Of a DNA stretch of 64,000 nt, positions 2,118-56,979 are shown piece after piece. The notes under the pieces are model-generated. The model searched no databases. It was not told where the DNA came from and saw nothing but the letters and a program-made list of their open reading frames with translations. This DNA is from Amycolatopsis balhimycina FH 1894 (GTDB taxonomy: Bacteria; Actinomycetota; Actinomycetes; Mycobacteriales; Pseudonocardiaceae), in assembly GCF_000384295.1 (NCBI RefSeq), contig NZ_KB913037.1, positions 7,131,533-7,195,532 on the forward strand, given 5' to 3'. The position numbers were made by a program, and so were the translations under genes. Numbering within the stretch: the stretch's first letter is position 1; every line of letters starts with the position of its first letter.

Positions 2118-2235
2118 GTCCGGAGCAGGGTCGAGAGCCGGTCGAGGGGGGTGTGGTGTTGGCCGGGTGAGGTGGACGGACCTCGGAAGCGGCGGGTACC
2201 GTAGCCCGCACAACTGCAGATCGGGCCGTCGAGCC

Positions 2236-2436
2236 GAGGCGGGAGAGCCCTCACGAACGTGGTGGGGCACCGAAGGAGCAAACTCCCCGGAATCTCTCAG
2301 GTACCCGCTACCGCTTCGCGCGAGGCCACTCTGGAAAGCAGGCGCACCCGCGTCTCACCCAAGGTGAAAGCCGCACTGTGTCTTCTCCCAGCAGCGCGGT
2401 GAAACTCTCAGGTGCCATGACAGAGGGGGAGTTCCC
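2236..2436 (+). promoter_or_regulatory. tandem glycine riboswitch
   Basis: Two consecutive glycine aptamers are recognisable. Aptamer 1 has GGGAGAG at 2241-2247, CACCGAAGGAGCAAAC at 2269-2284, TCTCTCAGGTA at 2293-2303 and CTCTGGAAAGC near 2329-2339. Aptamer 2 has CACCCAAGGTGAAAGC at 2357-2372, ACTCTCAGGTGCC near 2403-2415 and GACAGAGGGGGAG at 2419-2431. The tandem ends just before gcvP. Glycine riboswitches of this class are usually ON switches feeding the glycine cleavage operon, as the genes here suggest. The rest of the 2072-2447 gap holds a palindrome and otherwise nothing I can identify. Confidence 0.93.
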
Positions 2437-47764: not shown

Positions 47765-48364
47765 ATGACCGCCCCGCCAACCCCCGGCGCCCCGGCGGTC
47801 GCCGGGCTCCTGCTCGCCGCCGGAGCGGGCCGCCGGTTCGGGGGCCCGAAGGCCCTCGCCGAACTCGACGGGGAACCTCTCGTTCTCCGCGCCCTGCGCA
47901 CCCTCGCCGAGGCGGGCTGCGCCCCGATCCGCGTCGTCGTCGGTGCTGCCGCCGGCGAGGTGGCCGCGCTCCTGCCCGACCCCGCCCAAGCTGTCCGAGC
48001 CGAGGACTGGGAGACCGGCATGGGCGCTTCCCTGAAAGCCGGCCTGGCCGCGCTCGAGACCACCGAAGGCCCTGTCGCCGCGCTCGTTCACCTCGTCGAC
48101 TTGCCCTGGGTCGGCCCCGGCATCCTCGCCCGCGTTGCCGCCGGCGCGTCCACCGAGACCGTCGCTCGCGCGGCCTACGACGGCGTCCCCGGCCACCCCG
48201 TCCTGCTCGGCCGGCGCTGGTGGGCCGAAATCGCCGACACCGCCCACGGCGACCGGGGCGCCCGCGACTGGCTCGCCACCCGCACCGACCTCCGGCTCGT
48301 CGAGTGCGGTGACCTCGGCAGCGGCCGGGACGTCGATCGGCGGGCCGACCTGCCCGGCCGGTGA
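47765..48364 (+). CDS. MocA-like nucleotidyltransferase for molybdenum cofactor
   Basis: A 199-residue NTP-transferase-fold protein. LLLAAGAGRRFGGPKALAELDG is the NTP-binding loop of the MobA/MocA group. EDWETGMGASLKAGLAAL and VHLVDLPWVGPGI follow in order, and RGARDWLATRTDLRLVE ends it. MocA makes the cytosine-dinucleotide form of Mo cofactor used by xanthine- and CO-dehydrogenase-type enzymes. That fits the adjacent cox-like genes. The next gene overlaps its stop by 4 nt. Confidence 0.86.
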   Translation: MTAPPTPGAPAVAGLLLAAGAGRRFGGPKALAELDGEPLVLRALRTLAEAGCAPIRVVVGAAAGEVAALLPDPAQAVRAEDWETGMGASLKAGLAALETTEGPVAALVHLVDLPWVGPGILARVAAGASTETVARAAYDGVPGHPVLLGRRWWAEIADTAHGDRGARDWLATRTDLRLVECGDLGSGRDVDRRADLPGR

Positions 48365-49272
48365 CCCGCACCCCGGCTTCCGCGCCGCCTACGATCGACA
48401 CCGTGATGGACTCGCCCGAAGAACTCGCCGCCGCGCTCGACGTGACCGGCTACCTCGCCGACGACGGGCTCGCGACCGCCGGGTTCCTCGCCCTGCGGAT
48501 GGGCCGGCCGCTGTTCTGCGAGGGCGAACCGGGCACCGGCAAGACGTCACTCGCCCTCGCGCTGGCCACCGCGCTGGGCTGGCCGCTCATCCGCCTCCAG
48601 TGCCACGAGGGCATCGACGCCGCCCAGGCCCTCTACGAGTGGGACTTCCCGCGGCAGCTCCTGCACCTGCGCGCGCTGGAGGCCGCCGGTGACGGGCACG
48701 TCGACGTCGAGACCGCCGAGCGCTCGCTCTACACCGAGCGCTTCCTGCTGGCCCGGCCGCTGCTGCAGGCCCTGATCACCGCGCCGTGCGTGCTGCTGGT
48801 CGACGAGATCGACCGCGCCGACGACGAGTTCGAAGCCTTCCTCCTGCAACTGCTCGACGAACACGCCGTGACCATCCCCGAATACGGCGAGGTCCGCGCC
48901 GAGCACCCCCCGTTGGTGGTACTGACCTCGAACCGGACCCGGGAGGTGCATGACGCCCTCAAACGGCGGTGCCTCTACCATTGGCTCGAACACCCGGACC
49001 TGGTGCGGGAGATCACGATCCTGCGCCGTAGGATTCCGCAAATAGGTGAAGTTCTGGCTCGGCAGATCGCTGAAGCGGTGCATCGGCTCCGCGAAATGGA
49101 CCTGCTGAAACCACCGGGAGTAGCGGAGTCACTCGATTGGGCGAGGGCTCTCTTGACTCTGCGGCGTGACGAGCTGGACGCGGCAACGGCGGCGCGGACG
49201 CTCGGGGCCGTCCTTAAATACAGCGAAGACCTCGACCGGGTCAGGGCCAAACTCGATGCCCTGTTCGCCTGA
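48361..49272 (+). CDS. coxD: MoxR-type AAA+ ATPase, CoxD-like
   Basis: A 303-residue AAA+ ATPase with Walker A GEPGTGKT (55-62), Walker B VLLVDEIDRADDE, sensor 1 VLTSNRTREV and Arg-finger region KRRCLYHW. CoxD-type ATPases work with a VWA protein (CoxE) to mature the CuSMo/Mo site of CO dehydrogenase. Here its partner gene is 2.3 kb away, on the far side of a glycosyltransferase gene and a tRNA. GTG 48361 overlaps the mocA-like stop; ATG 48406 is possible too. Confidence 0.9.
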   Translation: MTRTPASAPPTIDTVMDSPEELAAALDVTGYLADDGLATAGFLALRMGRPLFCEGEPGTGKTSLALALATALGWPLIRLQCHEGIDAAQALYEWDFPRQLLHLRALEAAGDGHVDVETAERSLYTERFLLARPLLQALITAPCVLLVDEIDRADDEFEAFLLQLLDEHAVTIPEYGEVRAEHPPLVVLTSNRTREVHDALKRRCLYHWLEHPDLVREITILRRRIPQIGEVLARQIAEAVHRLREMDLLKPPGVAESLDWARALLTLRRDELDAATAARTLGAVLKYSEDLDRVRAKLDALFA

Positions 49273-51281: not shown

Positions 51282-51398
51282 AACTCCGTTTCTTTTCCGA
51301 AGGCTCTTCGCGCCCACCCGCCGCTACCTTGGGTCGGCTGCGGCGAAGAGCGCGGTCTGCGCGCCCGCCCGGGGAGGGGTGTGTGCGCGGACCGCCCC

Positions 51399-51538
51399 GT
51401 CCCGGTAGCTCAGCAGGACAGAGCGCGGCGTTACCCCCGCTTTCGGGGGTCCAGGGGGCTTGCCCCCGGCTGGGGTCTGGGGTTTGACCCCAGATGACAC
51501 GAACGCCGAGGTCCGAGGTTCGACTCCTCGCCGGGACA
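51399..51538 (+). tRNA. tRNA-Arg(ACG) interrupted in the anticodon loop
   Basis: All four stems pair perfectly once a 66-nt block is removed: acceptor GTCCCGG (51399-51405) with CCGGGAC (51531-51537), D stem GCTC with GAGC, anticodon stem CGGCG (51426-51430) with CGCCG (51504-51508), T stem CGAGG with CCTCG around TTCGACT. The rejoined loop is TTACGAA, giving anticodon ACG. A20 in the D loop, C35 and discriminator A73 agree with arginine identity. The sequence resembles E. coli tRNA-Arg(ACG). CCA is not encoded. Whether it matures is unknown; without splicing it is a pseudogene. Confidence 0.8.
51434..51499 (+). other. 66-nt three-hairpin insertion in the tRNA anticodon loop
   Basis: The block lies between anticodon bases A34 and C35; AC at each junction makes the exact point ambiguous by 1 nt either way. 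It folds into three consecutive hairpins: CCCCCG/CGGGGG (loop CTTT), GGGGG/CCCCC (loop CTTG), and TCTGGGG/CCCCAGA (loop TTTGA). It is far too short for a group I intron and has no ORF. It looks like a small GC-rich dispersed repeat or an intron-like element. Confidence 0.75.
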
Positions 51539-51592
51539 CCGACAGTGACAGTGACACCGACAGCGCGGCACGAATGCGCGCACAATGGAGGC

Positions 51593-52705
51593 ATGACCAC
51601 CGCCGCCGACCCCGTCGCCGGCTACGCCGGGTTCGCCGCCGCGCTGCGCGAAGCCGGTGTCGCCTGCGACGCACGCCGCGTGCAGGCGTACCTGGCGGCC
51701 GTCGCCGAGATCGACGTCGCCGAGCCCACGCAGCTGTACTGGGCCGGCCGGCTGACGTTGTGTTCGAGCCCGGACGACCTGCCGTACTACGAAGAGGCCT
51801 TCAGCCAGTGGTTTTCCCTCGAGCCGCCGGCCCCGCGGCGCGCGAAGGCCGCAGTTCCGAAGCAGGCCCGGATCGCGCCCCTGGTCGCCGCGGAAGGCGG
51901 CGACGCCGAGGGCGGTGACGGTCACGAGCAGCTGAAGGTCGCCGCGAGTGCCCAAGAGGTGCTGCGCCACCGCGACCTCGCCGCGCTGACCACCGCCGAA
52001 CGCGAACACCTCCGCGAGCTGCTCGCCACCCTCCGGCCGGCGCCTCCCAGCCGTCCCGCGGTCCGGCGGACGCCGGCGCGGCGCGGCAAGCTCGACCCGT
52101 CGCGGACGCTGCGCGCGATGCTGGCCGGCGGCGGCGAACCGGTCCGGCTCGCCCACGTCCGGCGCGGCTCGCGGCCCCGGCGGGTCGTGCTGCTCATCGA
52201 CGTCTCGGGGTCGATGAGCCCGTACGCCGACGCTTTGCTGCGGTTCGCGCACGTCCTCACGCGGTCCGCGCCGCAGGCCGTCGAGGTGTTCACGCTCGGC
52301 ACGCGGCTGACCCGGGTGTCGCGCCAGCTGCGCCAGCGCGACCCGGAACGCGCGATGCTCGCCGCGGGCTCGGCGGTGCCGGACTTCGCCGGCGGCACCC
52401 GGCTCGGCGAGACGCTGCGGGCCTTCCTCGACCGCTGGGGACAGCGCGGCGTGGCGCGCCGCGCTGTGGTCACCGTGTTCTCCGACGGCTGGGAACGCGG
52501 CGACACCGCTCTGCTCGGCGAACAGCTGGCCCGGCTGCGCCGGCTCGCACACGCCGTATTCTGGGTGAATCCGCACGCCGGCCGCGCGGGGTACGCGCCG
52601 GTCCAATCGGGCATCGTGGCCGCGCTGCCCCACATCGACCGGCTGCTGGCCGGGCACACCCTGGCCACTTTGGAACGACTGCTCGGGGAGATTTCCGATG
52701 CGTGA
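51593..52705 (+). CDS. coxE: VWA-domain protein, CoxE-like
   Basis: A 370-residue protein with an N-terminal helical region, an Ala/Glu-rich linker (about 90-150) and a C-terminal von Willebrand A-type domain. The MIDAS motif DVSGS is at 203-207 (LLIDVSGSMSPYAD). FAGGTRLGETLRAFLD and VTVFSDGWERGD carry the later MIDAS residues. CoxE pairs with the CoxD ATPase in maturing the Mo enzyme. ATG 51593 is preceded by ATGGAGGC. The gene starts 55 nt after the interrupted tRNA, and the next gene overlaps its stop by 8 nt. Confidence 0.9.
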   Translation: MTTAADPVAGYAGFAAALREAGVACDARRVQAYLAAVAEIDVAEPTQLYWAGRLTLCSSPDDLPYYEEAFSQWFSLEPPAPRRAKAAVPKQARIAPLVAAEGGDAEGGDGHEQLKVAASAQEVLRHRDLAALTTAEREHLRELLATLRPAPPSRPAVRRTPARRGKLDPSRTLRAMLAGGGEPVRLAHVRRGSRPRRVVLLIDVSGSMSPYADALLRFAHVLTRSAPQAVEVFTLGTRLTRVSRQLRQRDPERAMLAAGSAVPDFAGGTRLGETLRAFLDRWGQRGVARRAVVTVFSDGWERGDTALLGEQLARLRRLAHAVFWVNPHAGRAGYAPVQSGIVAALPHIDRLLAGHTLATLERLLGEISDA

Positions 52706-53810
52706 CGTACTGGACGACGTGTTCCGGCGCTGGTCGGCGGGGGAGACCGTCGGGCTCGGCACCGTGGTCGCCACCTTTTCCTCGGCGCCGCGCGCGCCCG
52801 GCGCCGCGATGGTCGTCGCCGGGGACGGCACCGTCGCGGGCAGCGTGTCCGGCGGCTGTGTCGAAGGCGCGGTCTACGAGCTGGCGCAGGAGGTCGTCGC
52901 CGAACGGAGACCGGTGCTGCAGCGCTACGGCGTCACCGACGACGACGCCTTCGCGGTGGGTTTGACCTGCGGCGGGATCATCGACATCTACGTCGAGGCG
53001 GTCGACCGCCAGTCGATGCCGGAGCTCGGCGACGTTGTCGCGTCGGTGCGCGGCGGCGAGCCGGTCGCGGTCGTCACGGTCATCGAGCACGAGCGCGAAG
53101 GCCTGGTCGGCGAGCACATGATCGTGTGGCCGGACCGGACGGCGGGCTCGCTGGGGTCGTCGCGGATGGACGACGCCGTGGCCGACGACGCGCGCGGCCT
53201 GCTGGCCAGCGGCCGCACCGGCACGCTGCACTACGGCCCGGACGGGCAGCGCCGCGGCGAGGGGATGGCGGTGTTCGTCAACTCCTTCGAGCCGCCGCCC
53301 CGGCTCCTGGTCTTCGGCGCGATCGACTTCGCCGCCGCGATGGCGCGCATGGGCGCCTACCTCGGTTACCAGGTCACGGTCTGCGACGCGCGGCCGGTGT
53401 TCGCCACCACCAGCCGGTTCCCGGACGCGCACGACGTCGTCGTCGACTGGCCGCACCGCTACTTGCGGGCGGAGGCCGACGCCGGCCGCATCGACCGGCG
53501 CACGGCGATCGCGGTGCTCACCCACGACCCCAAGTTCGACGTGCCGCTGCTGGAGGTCGCGCTGCGCCTGGACGTCGGCTACGTCGGCGCGATGGGCTCC
53601 CGCAAGACCCACGACGACCGCTTCGCGCGCCTGCGCGAGGCGGGGATCACCGAGGCGGAGCTGGAAAAGCTGGCTTCGCCCATCGGCCTCGACCTGGGCG
53701 CGCGCACGCCGGAGGAGACGGCGGTGTCGATCGCCGCGGAGATCATCGCGCTCCGCTGGGGAGGCGGCGGCCAACGGCTCGCGGAGCTGTCGGGGAGGAT
53801 TCACGGCTGA
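52698..53810 (+). CDS. coxF: XdhC/CoxF-type Mo-enzyme maturation factor
   Basis: A 370-residue protein with the N-terminal XdhC/CoxI domain (ATFSSAPRAPGAAMVV, GSVSGGCVEGAVYEL, LTCGGIIDIYVE) and a C-terminal Rossmann fold (LLVFGAIDFAAAMARMGAYL, AIAVLTHDPKFDVPLL, YVGAMGSRKTHDDR). XdhC-family proteins bind and protect sulfurated Mo cofactor and insert it into apo-hydroxylases. It fits between coxE and the structural genes. ATG start overlaps the coxE stop by 8 nt. Confidence 0.91.
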   Translation: MRDVLDDVFRRWSAGETVGLGTVVATFSSAPRAPGAAMVVAGDGTVAGSVSGGCVEGAVYELAQEVVAERRPVLQRYGVTDDDAFAVGLTCGGIIDIYVEAVDRQSMPELGDVVASVRGGEPVAVVTVIEHEREGLVGEHMIVWPDRTAGSLGSSRMDDAVADDARGLLASGRTGTLHYGPDGQRRGEGMAVFVNSFEPPPRLLVFGAIDFAAAMARMGAYLGYQVTVCDARPVFATTSRFPDAHDVVVDWPHRYLRAEADAGRIDRRTAIAVLTHDPKFDVPLLEVALRLDVGYVGAMGSRKTHDDRFARLREAGITEAELEKLASPIGLDLGARTPEETAVSIAAEIIALRWGGGGQRLAELSGRIHG

Positions 53811-54013
53811 GCATCCCGACGGGCCACAAAAGTTCACCCATCTGGATCTCCGCACATTCGGCGTCGATGCGGTGATTGCCGCGTATCTGCGGAATCGATA
53901 GTTGAACGTGTGACATCAGGGCTTGTCGGCGTGAAGGTCGCGTAGCACGCTCGGGGATTGTGAGCCCGATCACTGTCGGGCAGGCCGTTCCCGAACCGGC
54001 TTTTGGAGGCCTG

Positions 54014-54538
54014 ATGCGCATCACCGTCACCGTCGACGGGACGAAGTACACCGACGAAGTCGAACCCCGCACCCTGCTCGTGCACTACCTGCGGGAGCGG
54101 CTCGGCAAGGTCGGCACCGTCGTCGGCTGCGACACCAGCAACTGTGGCGCGTGCACCGTCCACCTGGACGGGCACAGCGTGAAGTCCTGCTCCGTGCTGG
54201 CCGTGCAGGCCGACGGCTGCGAGGTCACCACCATCGAAGGTCTCGCCCGCGACGGCAAGCTGCACCCGGTGCAGCAGGCCTTCCACGACAACCACGCGCT
54301 GCAGTGCGGGTTCTGCACGCCGGGGATGATCATGCAGTCGATCGACCTGCTGGCCGACAACCCCGACCCGGACGAGCACGCCGTCCGCGAGGGCCTCGAA
54401 GGCAACCTCTGCCGCTGCACCGGCTACCAGAACATCGTCCGCGCGGTCCGGGACGCCGCGAAGCAGATGAGCCCCGGCGCCGGCCCCGAAGCCGAGCGGA
54501 TCGCCGAGAACAAGCACGTCGGCGTGGGTGGTGACTGA
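54014..54538 (+). CDS. coxS: Mo hydroxylase 2Fe-2S small subunit (CoxS-like)
   Basis: A 174-residue two-domain iron-sulfur subunit. The plant-ferredoxin-type cluster is Cys39, Cys44, Cys47 and Cys59 ([17 protein letters not shown]). The C-terminal helical cluster is Cys98, Cys101, Cys133 and Cys135 ([20 protein letters not shown]). It carries electrons from the Mo site to the FAD subunit. ATG 54014 has TTTTGGAGG upstream; a start at 53960 is unlikely. It is first of the S-L-M structural operon, with coxL overlapping its stop. Confidence 0.95.
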
Positions 54539-56979
54539 TGACCGCCACGATCGAACCGGAGGTCGGGAAGTCCCGCCGCCGCAAGGAGGACGAGCGGCTG
54601 ATCACCGGCCGCACCCGCTGGACCGACAACATCACGCTGCCTGGCCTGCTGCACCTGGCGGTGCTGCGCAGCCCGTTCGCGCACGCCAAGATCGTCTCGA
54701 TCGACACGTCGGCGGCGAAGGGCGCGCCCGGCGTCATCGCCGTCTACACCGCCGAGGACCTCGACCCGGACGGCTCGGTCGGCATGCCCTGCGCGTGGCC
54801 GATCACGCCGGACATGAAGGCGCCGCGCCGCCCGGTGCTCGCCGCCGGCACGGTCAACTTCGCCGGTGAGGGCGTCGCGGTCGTCGTCGCGCGGTCGTCG
54901 GCCGAGGCGCACGACGCGCTCGAGGAAATCGACGTCGAATACGACGAGCTGCCGGTCATCCTCGACATGGAAGCCGCCATCGCCGACGGCGCCGCGCTGG
55001 TCCACGAGGACCTCGGCACCAACACGAACGCGGTCTGGAAGTTCGACTCCGCCGAAGCGGGCACCGGCGGGAACGTCGAGGACGCGATCAGCTCGTCGGA
55101 GGTCGTGCTCAAGCGGCGCTTCCGCCAGCAGCGGCTGGTCCCGGCCTTCATGGAGCCGCGGGCCTGCGTCGTCGACCCGACCAGCGCCCAGATCACCGTG
55201 TGGTCGGCCACGCAGATCCCGCACATCCTGCGCGTGATGTCGGCGCTGACGCTCGGCATCCCCGAGCACAAGCTGCGCGTGATCGCCCCGGATGTCGGCG
55301 GCGGCTTCGGCGGCAAGATCGGCGTCCTGCCCGAAGAGATGATGGCACTGCTCATCGCGCGGAAGCTCGGCAAGCCGGTCAAGTGGAACGAGACGCGGTC
55401 GGAGACGATGCTCGCCGCGCACCACGGCCGCGACCAGATCCAGGACATCACCATTTCGGCGACCCGCGACGGCCAGGTCACCGGCCTCAAGGTCGAGCTG
55501 CTCGCCAACCTCGGCGCGTACAACGGCCTCGTCGGCCCGGGCGTGCCGATCCTCGGCGCGTTCATGTTCAACGCGATCTACAAGATCCCGGCGTACCACT
55601 TCGCGTGCACCAACGTGTACACGACGACGACGCTGACCGACGCCTACCGCGGCGCCGGGCGCCCGGAAGCGACGTTCGCGATCGAGCGGATCATGGACGA
55701 GCTGGCCGCCGAGCTCGGCGTCGACCCGATGGAACTGCGCGAGAAGAACTGGATCAAGCACGAGGAGTTCCCGTTCACCACGGTGTGCGGGCTGACCTAC
55801 GACTCCGGCAACTACGAGGCCGCCACCGAGAAGGCCAAGCAGCTCTTCGACTACGACGGCCTGCGCGCCGAGCAGCGGGAGCGTCGCGCGTCGAAGGACA
55901 AGGTCCAGCTCGGCATCGGCATTTCGACGTTCACCGAGATGTGCGGCCTCGCGCCGTCTCGGGTGCTCGGCTCGCTCGCCTACGGCGCCGGCGGCTGGGA
56001 ATACGCGTCGATCCGGATGCTGCCCACCGGCAAGGTCGAGGTCACGACCGGCGCGTCGGCGCACGGCCAGGGCCACGAGACGGCGTGGAGCCAGATCGTC
56101 GCCGACCAGCTGGGTGTCGCTTTCGAGGACGTCGAGATCCTGCACGGCGACACCCAGTCGTCGCACAAAGGCCTGGACACCTACGGTTCGCGGTCGCTGG
56201 TGGTCGGCGGGATCGCCGTCATCAAGGCCGCGGAGAAAGTCGTCGCGAAGGCCAAGCCGATCGCGGCGCACCTGCTCGAGTGCGCCGAGGACGACCTCGA
56301 GTTCGCCGGCGGCAAGTTCACCGTGAAGGGCACCGACACGTCGACGACCATGGGCGACGTCGCACTCGCGACGTTCTTCGCGCACAACCTGCCCGACGGG
56401 GTCGAGCCGTCGCTCGACTCGGACGCGACGTTCGACCCGGAGAACTTCTCGTTCCCGCACGGCACGCACCTGTGCGCGGCCGAGGTGGACACCGAGACCG
56501 GCCGGATCAAGCTGCGTTCGTACGTCTGCGTCGACGACGTCGGCGTCGCGGTGAACCCGCTGATCGTCGAGGGCCAGGTGCACGGCGGACTCGCGCAGGG
56601 CATCGCGCAAGCGCTGTTCGAGGGCACCGAGCACGACGAGAGCGGCACGCTCACTACCGGCACGTTCGCCGACTACCTGCTGCCCTCGGCGGCCGACCTG
56701 CCGTCGTTCACCACCGACCGCACGGAAACGCCGTCGACGACGAACCCGCTCGGCGCCAAGGGCGTCGGCGAAGCGGGCACGATCGCGTCCACCCCGGCGG
56801 TGGTCAACGCGGTGGTCGACGCGGTGCGGCAGTTCGGCGTCAACGACATCGAGATGCCGTTGACGCCGATGCGGGTGTGGCACGCCATCCAGCACGGCAC
56901 CACCGACGCGGGCGGCCCCGGCCGCGGCGAAGCCGGTGGCGGCCTCGGTTCGATCGACGCGACCGGAGGTGCGCAGTGA
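54538..56979 (+). CDS. coxL: Mo hydroxylase large subunit, form II CoxL-like
   Basis: An 813-residue molybdopterin-binding subunit. GGGFGGKIG and GQGHETAWSQI are Mo-cofactor contacts, and the active-site Glu is in AKGVGEAGTIAS. The active-site loop reads AYRGAGR (369-375). This is the form II signature; true CO-oxidising form I enzymes have AYxCSFR, with the Cys that binds copper. Gene order S-L-M is also form II. Substrate is therefore probably an aldehyde, heterocycle or other organic molecule, not clearly CO. TGATG overlap with coxS. Confidence 0.95.
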   Translation: MTATIEPEVGKSRRRKEDERLITGRTRWTDNITLPGLLHLAVLRSPFAHAKIVSIDTSAAKGAPGVIAVYTAEDLDPDGSVGMPCAWPITPDMKAPRRPVLAAGTVNFAGEGVAVVVARSSAEAHDALEEIDVEYDELPVILDMEAAIADGAALVHEDLGTNTNAVWKFDSAEAGTGGNVEDAISSSEVVLKRRFRQQRLVPAFMEPRACVVDPTSAQITVWSATQIPHILRVMSALTLGIPEHKLRVIAPDVGGGFGGKIGVLPEEMMALLIARKLGKPVKWNETRSETMLAAHHGRDQIQDITISATRDGQVTGLKVELLANLGAYNGLVGPGVPILGAFMFNAIYKIPAYHFACTNVYTTTTLTDAYRGAGRPEATFAIERIMDELAAELGVDPMELREKNWIKHEEFPFTTVCGLTYDSGNYEAATEKAKQLFDYDGLRAEQRERRASKDKVQLGIGISTFTEMCGLAPSRVLGSLAYGAGGWEYASIRMLPTGKVEVTTGASAHGQGHETAWSQIVADQLGVAFEDVEILHGDTQSSHKGLDTYGSRSLVVGGIAVIKAAEKVVAKAKPIAAHLLECAEDDLEFAGGKFTVKGTDTSTTMGDVALATFFAHNLPDGVEPSLDSDATFDPENFSFPHGTHLCAAEVDTETGRIKLRSYVCVDDVGVAVNPLIVEGQVHGGLAQGIAQALFEGTEHDESGTLTTGTFADYLLPSAADLPSFTTDRTETPSTTNPLGAKGVGEAGTIASTPAVVNAVVDAVRQFGVNDIEMPLTPMRVWHAIQHGTTDAGGPGRGEAGGGLGSIDATGGAQ

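What the first reader, a model, noticed from the sequence alone, without database searches (positions are those of the whole stretch)
51399..51538. tRNA-Arg(ACG) gene split by a 66-nt three-hairpin insertion in the anticodon loop
Seen: acceptor, D, anticodon and T stems are all perfectly paired, and removing 66 nt leaves a canonical TTACGAA loop. A20, C35 and A73 match arginine identity. The insertion falls between bases 34 and 35, the site of the cyanobacterial tRNA-Leu group I intron, but it is far too short for a group I intron and consists of three hairpins. Known: bacteria lack the archaeal/eukaryal tRNA splicing endonuclease. Inference: either this is a tRNA killed by a small repeat while the stems stay perfect (a recent event), or a new kind of tRNA intron or processing exists. 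Perfect stems argue for recent insertion or continued function.
Basis: partly seen in the sequence, partly recalled or inferred. Interest (0 to 1): 0.9.

Follow-up and report, generated by a model that had tools for sequence, protein, structure and literature searches.

The report
tRNA-Arg gene broken by palindromic repeat
A spare arginine tRNA gene in a soil Amycolatopsis bacterium is interrupted by a small hairpin-rich mobile repeat that seems to have landed at the same spot at least twice in different species, so it is most likely a broken gene and not a new kind of intron, but the repeat's habit of returning to the same sites is unusual.

Summary
At 51399-51538 a tRNA-Arg(ACG) body with intact stems carries a 66-nt, three-hairpin insert in its anticodon loop. 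The genome (Amycolatopsis, 10.86 Mb, one contig) also has an ordinary intact tRNA-Arg(ACG), so the split gene is a spare. The insert is one of at least 20 dispersed copies of a palindromic repeat. Twenty-four of 80 genus genomes hold the same gene uninterrupted, including the sister species A. vastitatis. Two others are split at the same place by a different copy, with a decayed anticodon arm. The tree needs two separate events. The same repeat sits in frame in two protein genes, each at one site in 3 scattered genomes of 30 loci read. So this looks like recurrent same-site insertion by a small palindromic element, resembling the Rickettsia palindromic elements, that most likely inactivates a dispensable tRNA gene. 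No Y1 (RAYT) transposase was found in 4 of 4 genomes. A new tRNA intron is not supported, though only RNA data can exclude it. The recurrence and the unknown mobiliser are the interesting part.

The parts
51399..51433 (+). 5' half of the second tRNA-Arg(ACG) gene: acceptor 5' strand, D arm, anticodon-stem 5' strand, bases 32-34
   Evidence: sequence; apart from base 32 identical in 21 of 24 uninterrupted orthologs (L092, L093 and L094 differ at further bases)
51434..51499 (+). 66-nt three-hairpin palindromic repeat inserted in the anticodon loop
   Evidence: 20 matching places in the own genome at E<=0.001, itself included; fold
51500..51538 (+). 3' half of the tRNA: bases 35-38, anticodon-stem 3' strand, variable loop, T arm, acceptor 3' strand, A73
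   Evidence: sequence; orthologs
51352..51395 (+). conserved 11-bp hairpin (arms 51352-51362 and 51385-51395) ending 3 nt before the tRNA, present in split and intact orthologs alike
   Evidence: 100% paired in 25 distinct rows, but only 1 double-sided change and 82 of 500 shuffles as high, so covariation support is weak
51593..52705 (+). coxE-like VWA protein gene, starting 54 nt after the tRNA
   Evidence: Pfam VWA_CoxE, E 6.9e-52, on the reading frame 51494-52705; start codon read

Best explanation
A small mobile palindromic repeat (about 60-70 nt, three GC-rich hairpins, 5' end often near CCGCTTT, 3' end often near CCCCAGAAGACA) inserted into the anticodon loop of a second, non-essential tRNA-Arg(ACG) gene upstream of coxE. 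Shown: it is a dispersed repeat, the sister species has the empty site, and a different copy sits at the same place in a second lineage. Inferred: the insert blocks decoding and charging (the anticodon bases are moved apart), so the gene is a pseudogene and the cell relies on the intact tRNA-Arg(ACG) elsewhere. Perfect stems reflect a recent event in this species. The repeat inserts repeatedly at particular sites, including in-frame sites in protein genes, by an unidentified enzyme or repair process.
For: Intact tRNA-Arg(ACG) at G000:5551716 and Arg anticodons CCG, CCT, TCT. Twenty places match, itself included; the closest other copy is 96% identical over about 56 nt. Uninterrupted ortholog with loop CTACGAA, a perfect anticodon stem and the same leader in 24 of 24 loci L071-L094. 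In the tree from three loci the window's genome groups with A. vastitatis (intact) at 100/100, and G028+G051 (split) are sisters elsewhere at 100/98; two changes are needed and a single clade is rejected, AU p 1e-7. The two inserts match other copies better than each other: 91.5 and 76.1 bits against 62.6. The same pattern occurs in a secreted-protein gene (3 of 30 loci read) and a PucR regulator gene (3 of 30 loci read), each needing three changes, AU p 2e-61 and 1e-9. Close flanks of carriers resemble near relatives more than other carriers at the tRNA site and at the secreted-protein site for G000 and G028.
Against: No RNA data, so loss of function is inferred. The two sister split genes differ at 1 of about 71 tRNA bases where 4.4 neutral changes are expected (P for at most 1 = 0.066), a hint of constraint that is not significant; the insert also differs at 1 base only. 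Rfam's tRNA model accepts these two split genes above threshold. In the tree of the upstream flank alone the uninterrupted L089 falls with L101, inside the split pair, unlike the joint tree. At the secreted gene the right flank of G067 is as close to a carrier (G000) as to its relatives, and the PucR left flank is too uniform to tell. The mobiliser is unknown and the exact borders were not fixed.
Confidence: 0.85

Rival explanations
1. The insert is a new type of bacterial tRNA intron: hairpins are cut out by a nuclease and the halves are joined by RtcB, giving a working tRNA-Arg(ACG).
For: Stems complementary in the window; the insert stacks on the anticodon stem in the predicted fold; an RtcB homolog is present in 3 of 3 genomes tested; Rfam's tRNA model accepts the G028 and G051 genes with their inserts.
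Against: Gene is redundant. In G028 and G051 the arm has an A31xC39 mismatch and loop ATTGCCA...GACGAGCA, from which I see no single excision giving a 7-nt ACG loop. No tRNA_int_endo in 3 of 3 genomes. The same repeat sits in protein genes, where it is read through in frame.
Confidence: 0.04
2. One old insertion in a common ancestor, later lost precisely many times or moved between lineages by recombination, instead of repeated insertion.
For: Both split forms have T at base 32; the PucR inserts of G000 and G056 share the same left junction; the upstream-flank tree mixes an uninterrupted genome into the split pair.
Against: Would need many scar-free losses among 24 uninterrupted genomes, each also restoring C32. 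Close flanks of most carriers resemble their relatives and not other carriers. The two tRNA inserts are more like other copies than like each other.
Confidence: 0.1
3. The split gene has become a different RNA, for example a structured leader or processing signal for the coxE operon, and is kept for that.
For: Conserved hairpin directly upstream and coxE directly downstream; the whole 135-nt gene differs at 2 positions between G028 and G051, fewer than the about 8 expected from fourfold sites (rate, scaled by hand).
Against: The leader is also present in uninterrupted orthologs, 24 of 24; 5 of 24 of these do not show the coxE start within 77 nt; the two lineages' inserts differ in length and sequence.
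Confidence: 0.06
4. Assembly or sequencing artefact.
For: GC-rich hairpins are hard to sequence (recalled).
Confidence: 0.01

Closest known systems
Rickettsia palindromic elements (RPE; protein-coding palindromes)
   Same: Small hairpin-forming repeats, dispersed, inserted in frame in protein genes and also in RNA genes (tmRNA and M1 RNA), as stated in the review PMC2229807 (passages seen).
   Different: RPEs are 105-146 bp, rickettsial, with 12-bp terminal repeats (same passages); this one is about 60-70 nt with three hairpins, in an actinobacterium, in a tRNA anticodon loop, and appears to return to the same sites in different species. The primary RPE paper was not held.
REP sequences and RAYT transposases
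   Same: Short GC-rich palindromes, dispersed; some lie 69-78 nt after tRNA genes, as terminators would.
   Different: No Y1_Tnp (PF01797) match in 4 of 4 genomes, while 5 of 14 control genomes match; several copies lie inside genes.
Group I introns in bacterial tRNA genes
   Same: Position in the anticodon loop, next to base 34 (position in tRNA-Leu recalled).
   Different: 66 nt, no Rfam intron match, insert repeated at non-tRNA sites.
Archaeal and eukaryal tRNA introns
   Same: Short insert in the anticodon loop.
   Different: No splicing endonuclease family found in 3 of 3 genomes; redundant gene; same block dispersed through the genome.

Membership tests
Protein-coding palindromic repeats (RPE-like) | dispersed, hairpin-forming repeat family | tested here: met
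   20 places in own genome, itself included; fold
Protein-coding palindromic repeats (RPE-like) | in-frame insertion in conserved protein genes with empty orthologs | tested here: met
   PucR: 540 against 517 aa, clean 23-residue insert; net 69, 69 and 54 nt in 3 carriers, 25 empty. Secreted-protein gene: net 69 nt in 3 of 3 carriers
Protein-coding palindromic repeats (RPE-like) | terminal inverted repeats as in Rickettsia RPE | tested here: inconclusive
   copies tend to end near GCTTT and GACA (17 and 21 of 44) but exact ends were not fixed; sequence kinship with RPE was not tested
REP/RAYT | RAYT (Y1) transposase in the genome | tested here: not met
   0 of 4 genomes
Functional tRNA gene | contiguous anticodon loop recognised by tRNA finders | tested here: not met
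   window gene. The G028 and G051 split genes do pass Rfam's tRNA threshold, the insert being treated as an insertion
Functional tRNA gene | mature charged tRNA | not testable with these tools
   needs RNA data
Group I intron | group I catalytic core | tested here: not met
   no Rfam intron match at gathering score or at E up to 10; 66 nt
Archaeal-type tRNA intron | tRNA splicing endonuclease encoded | tested here: not met
   PF01974 in 0 of 3 genomes; 4 of 14 controls match, all archaeal
Archaeal-type tRNA intron | bulge-helix-bulge at exon-intron borders | not tested
   -

The most novel reading that the evidence does not exclude
A homing-like palindromic element without any known transposase inserts at fixed sites, including the anticodon loop of a tRNA gene and in-frame sites in protein genes, and in the window's species the hairpin block is removed at RNA level so that the tRNA still works. 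The first half (recurrent insertion at fixed sites by an unknown process) is well supported; the second half (RNA removal) is not excluded. The probability given is for the full statement.
Probability: 0.04. Interest if true: 0.95.

Novelty: new variant of a known kind. Interest (0 to 1): 0.5.

Why it matters
It removes a tempting false lead, a bacterial tRNA intron, and replaces it with a testable pattern: a tiny repeat that appears at the same nucleotide in different Amycolatopsis species, in a tRNA loop and, in whole codons (23 or 18), in two protein genes. How such elements move and choose sites is an open question for palindromic repeats in general, and these matched filled and empty sites in near relatives make it directly testable.

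Tried and rejected
A target motif: the right flanks at the three sites share CGAA (tRNA ACGAACGCC, secreted gene GCGAAAGCG, PucR GCGAAAACG). Over 44 copies CGAA occurs within 22 nt in 9 of 44 against 186 of 1593 control windows, too weak to claim. In the same test the element's own ends stand out: GCTTT/GCTTC on the left in 17 of 44 against 28 of 1593, GACA on the right in 21 of 44 against 76 of 1593. The 44 include orthologous copies in different genomes.

RAYT mobilisation: PF01797 absent in 4 of 4 genomes.

Other tRNA genes split by the element: a pattern of the third hairpin followed by a T arm over 80 genus genomes gave 31 places in 24 genomes; judged by matched text alone, only the three known loci are tRNA genes. 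A first version with a wrong loop length missed the own locus and is not used for this. A search of 297 family genomes for this tRNA split by a 56-86 nt stretch found 3 genomes; it is specific to this tRNA, so splits of other tRNAs were not surveyed outside the genus.

Selection on the split gene: the window's gene and its sister show few changes, but for an unknown part of that time the gene was intact, so nothing follows; for G028/G051 P is 0.066. Covariation of the upstream hairpin is weak. Folds of the G028 and G051 genes are not better than many shuffles: 40 and 13 of 200 as good.

Dropped before counts: L095 matches the tRNA at 90% over 69 nt but lies at another locus without the leader, so it is not among the 24. 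Weaker matches (about 79-87%) were not read one by one beyond L096-L100 and L103-L108. At the protein loci 5 of 30 (secreted gene) and 2 of 30 (PucR) could not be measured by script; read by eye they show no element.

Literature: searches show no report of such an insert in a tRNA anticodon loop in their listings (titles and starts of abstracts seen); most subscription papers are not held.

The secreted-protein locus was chosen because two copies already looked orthologous, so it is not an unbiased sample; the PucR locus was chosen before its relatives were known.

Full report
What is there. The window lies at 7131533-7195532 of a 10,858,503-base single-contig genome. Named GTDB records with the exact tRNA 5' half are all Amycolatopsis, 12 of 12. 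At 51399-51538 a tRNA-Arg(ACG) body is interrupted after base 34 by 66 nt that form three hairpins. ARAGORN and Rfam's tRNA model do not report it. The minimum-energy fold keeps acceptor, anticodon and T helices but not the D arm.

Is the gene needed? Rfam's tRNA model finds 51 tRNA genes in the genome. ARAGORN on stretches covering these 51 places names Arg anticodons ACG, CCG, CCT and TCT, the ACG one being an ordinary intact gene at 5551716. The split gene is therefore a second copy.

What is the insert? The 66 nt match 20 places in the own genome at E up to 0.001, one being itself (40 of 52 candidates were scored, so this is a lower bound). The next best copy is 96% identical over about 56 nt. 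Copies often begin near CCGCTTT and end near CCCCAGAAGACA. It is a dispersed palindromic repeat.

Relatives. With the empty-site sequence as query, 53 of 80 genus genomes have some match. Twenty-five loci match at 90% or more over at least 69 nt; one (L095) is at another place, and the other 24 (L071-L094) share the leader. All 24 have the loop CTACGAA and a perfect anticodon stem, and 19 of 24 also show the coxE start within 77 nt. Two more genomes, G028 (L101) and G051 (L102; the latter corresponds to CA-126428), are split at the same place, the gene being 135 nt long. In these two the anticodon arm is damaged (A31 against C39), while the other stems are intact; Rfam's tRNA model still accepts them at 38.5 and 40.4 bits. 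Of 297 family genomes 3 have the split form of this tRNA.

Two insertions. In a tree of 27 genomes from flanks of three loci, inserts excluded (4241 columns; 12 of 24 inner branches well supported, 10 left open; G043 lacks one locus and has an odd letter make-up), the window's genome is sister to G078 (A. vastitatis, uninterrupted) with support 100/100. G028 and G051 are sisters (100/98) next to the uninterrupted G064 (99/99) in another group. Two changes are needed; holding the three split genomes together is rejected (AU p 1e-7). The upstream flank alone places G064 with G028 inside that pair, so the order within that trio is less certain; the separation from the window's genome is not affected. 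The window insert scores 62.6 bits against the G028 insert, while their best other matches score 91.5 and 76.1 bits.

The same at protein genes. At a secreted-protein gene the element lies just after the likely signal peptide (read by eye, not tested with a predictor) in G000, G028 and G067, 3 of 30 loci read. Each adds 69 nt at the same point, while G078 and G051, the sisters of two carriers, are empty. At a PucR regulator gene it is in G000, G056 and G043, 3 of 30 loci read, adding 69, 69 and 54 nt; the protein alignment shows 540 aa in the window's genome and 535 in A. rifamycinica against 517 in A. mediterranei. Both patterns need three changes on the tree and one clade is rejected. Close flanks of carriers are nearest to their relatives at the tRNA site and, for G000 and G028, at the secreted-protein site; the right flank of G067 is no closer to its relatives than to the carrier G000, and the PucR left flank is nearly uniform.

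How it works. Best reading: a mobile palindromic repeat that repeatedly inserts at preferred sites and is tolerated where it does no harm: a spare tRNA, a signal-peptide junction, a spot within a regulator. The tRNA copy is most likely inactivated. The enzyme is unknown; no Y1 transposase was found. Splicing is unlikely: no splicing endonuclease, arm decayed in two species, gene redundant. RtcB is present, so joining of cut RNA is not excluded in principle. Between G028 and G051 the tRNA halves and the insert each differ at one base, so the halves are not better kept than the insert.

Comparison. The nearest known kind is the Rickettsia palindromic element, which the review PMC2229807 (passages) describes as inserted in frame in protein genes and in tmRNA and M1 RNA genes. 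The present family differs in size, architecture, host and in recurrence at identical sites. I judge it a new variant of that kind, not a new kind of intron.

Noticed in passing
L070 101-175 (G000:C1:7421741-7421814): An initiator-tRNA-like body whose anticodon loop reads ACGACTT instead of CTCATAA; ARAGORN calls it Val(gac). Possibly another decayed or altered tRNA.
   Followed up: no
L068 19-93, minus strand (within G000:C1:4469101-4469374): A tRNA-like sequence called Ala(tgc), with an unusual D arm, beside a tRNA-Leu(cag).
   Followed up: no
G000:C1 8952390, 955092, 6477594, 2973540: Copies of the repeat or its core lie 69-78 nt downstream of tRNA genes, as terminators would. Text like that of the one at 2973540 occurs in 20 of 80 genus genomes, own genome included; whether always after the same tRNA was not checked.
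   Followed up: partly
51352-51395: A GC-rich hairpin with a conserved CCGGGGAGG loop ends 3 nt before the tRNA in split and intact genomes.
   Followed up: partly
window 2230-2323: Glycine riboswitch aptamer, 54.3 bits.
   Followed up: no
48361-49272, 51593-56979: The tRNA sits in a cox-type gene cluster: AAA ATPase, CoxE, XdhC/CoxI, 2Fe-2S and molybdopterin subunits.
   Followed up: no
L040, L044, L037: Further copies read in frame at or near the N-termini of proteins; empty orthologs not examined.
   Followed up: partly
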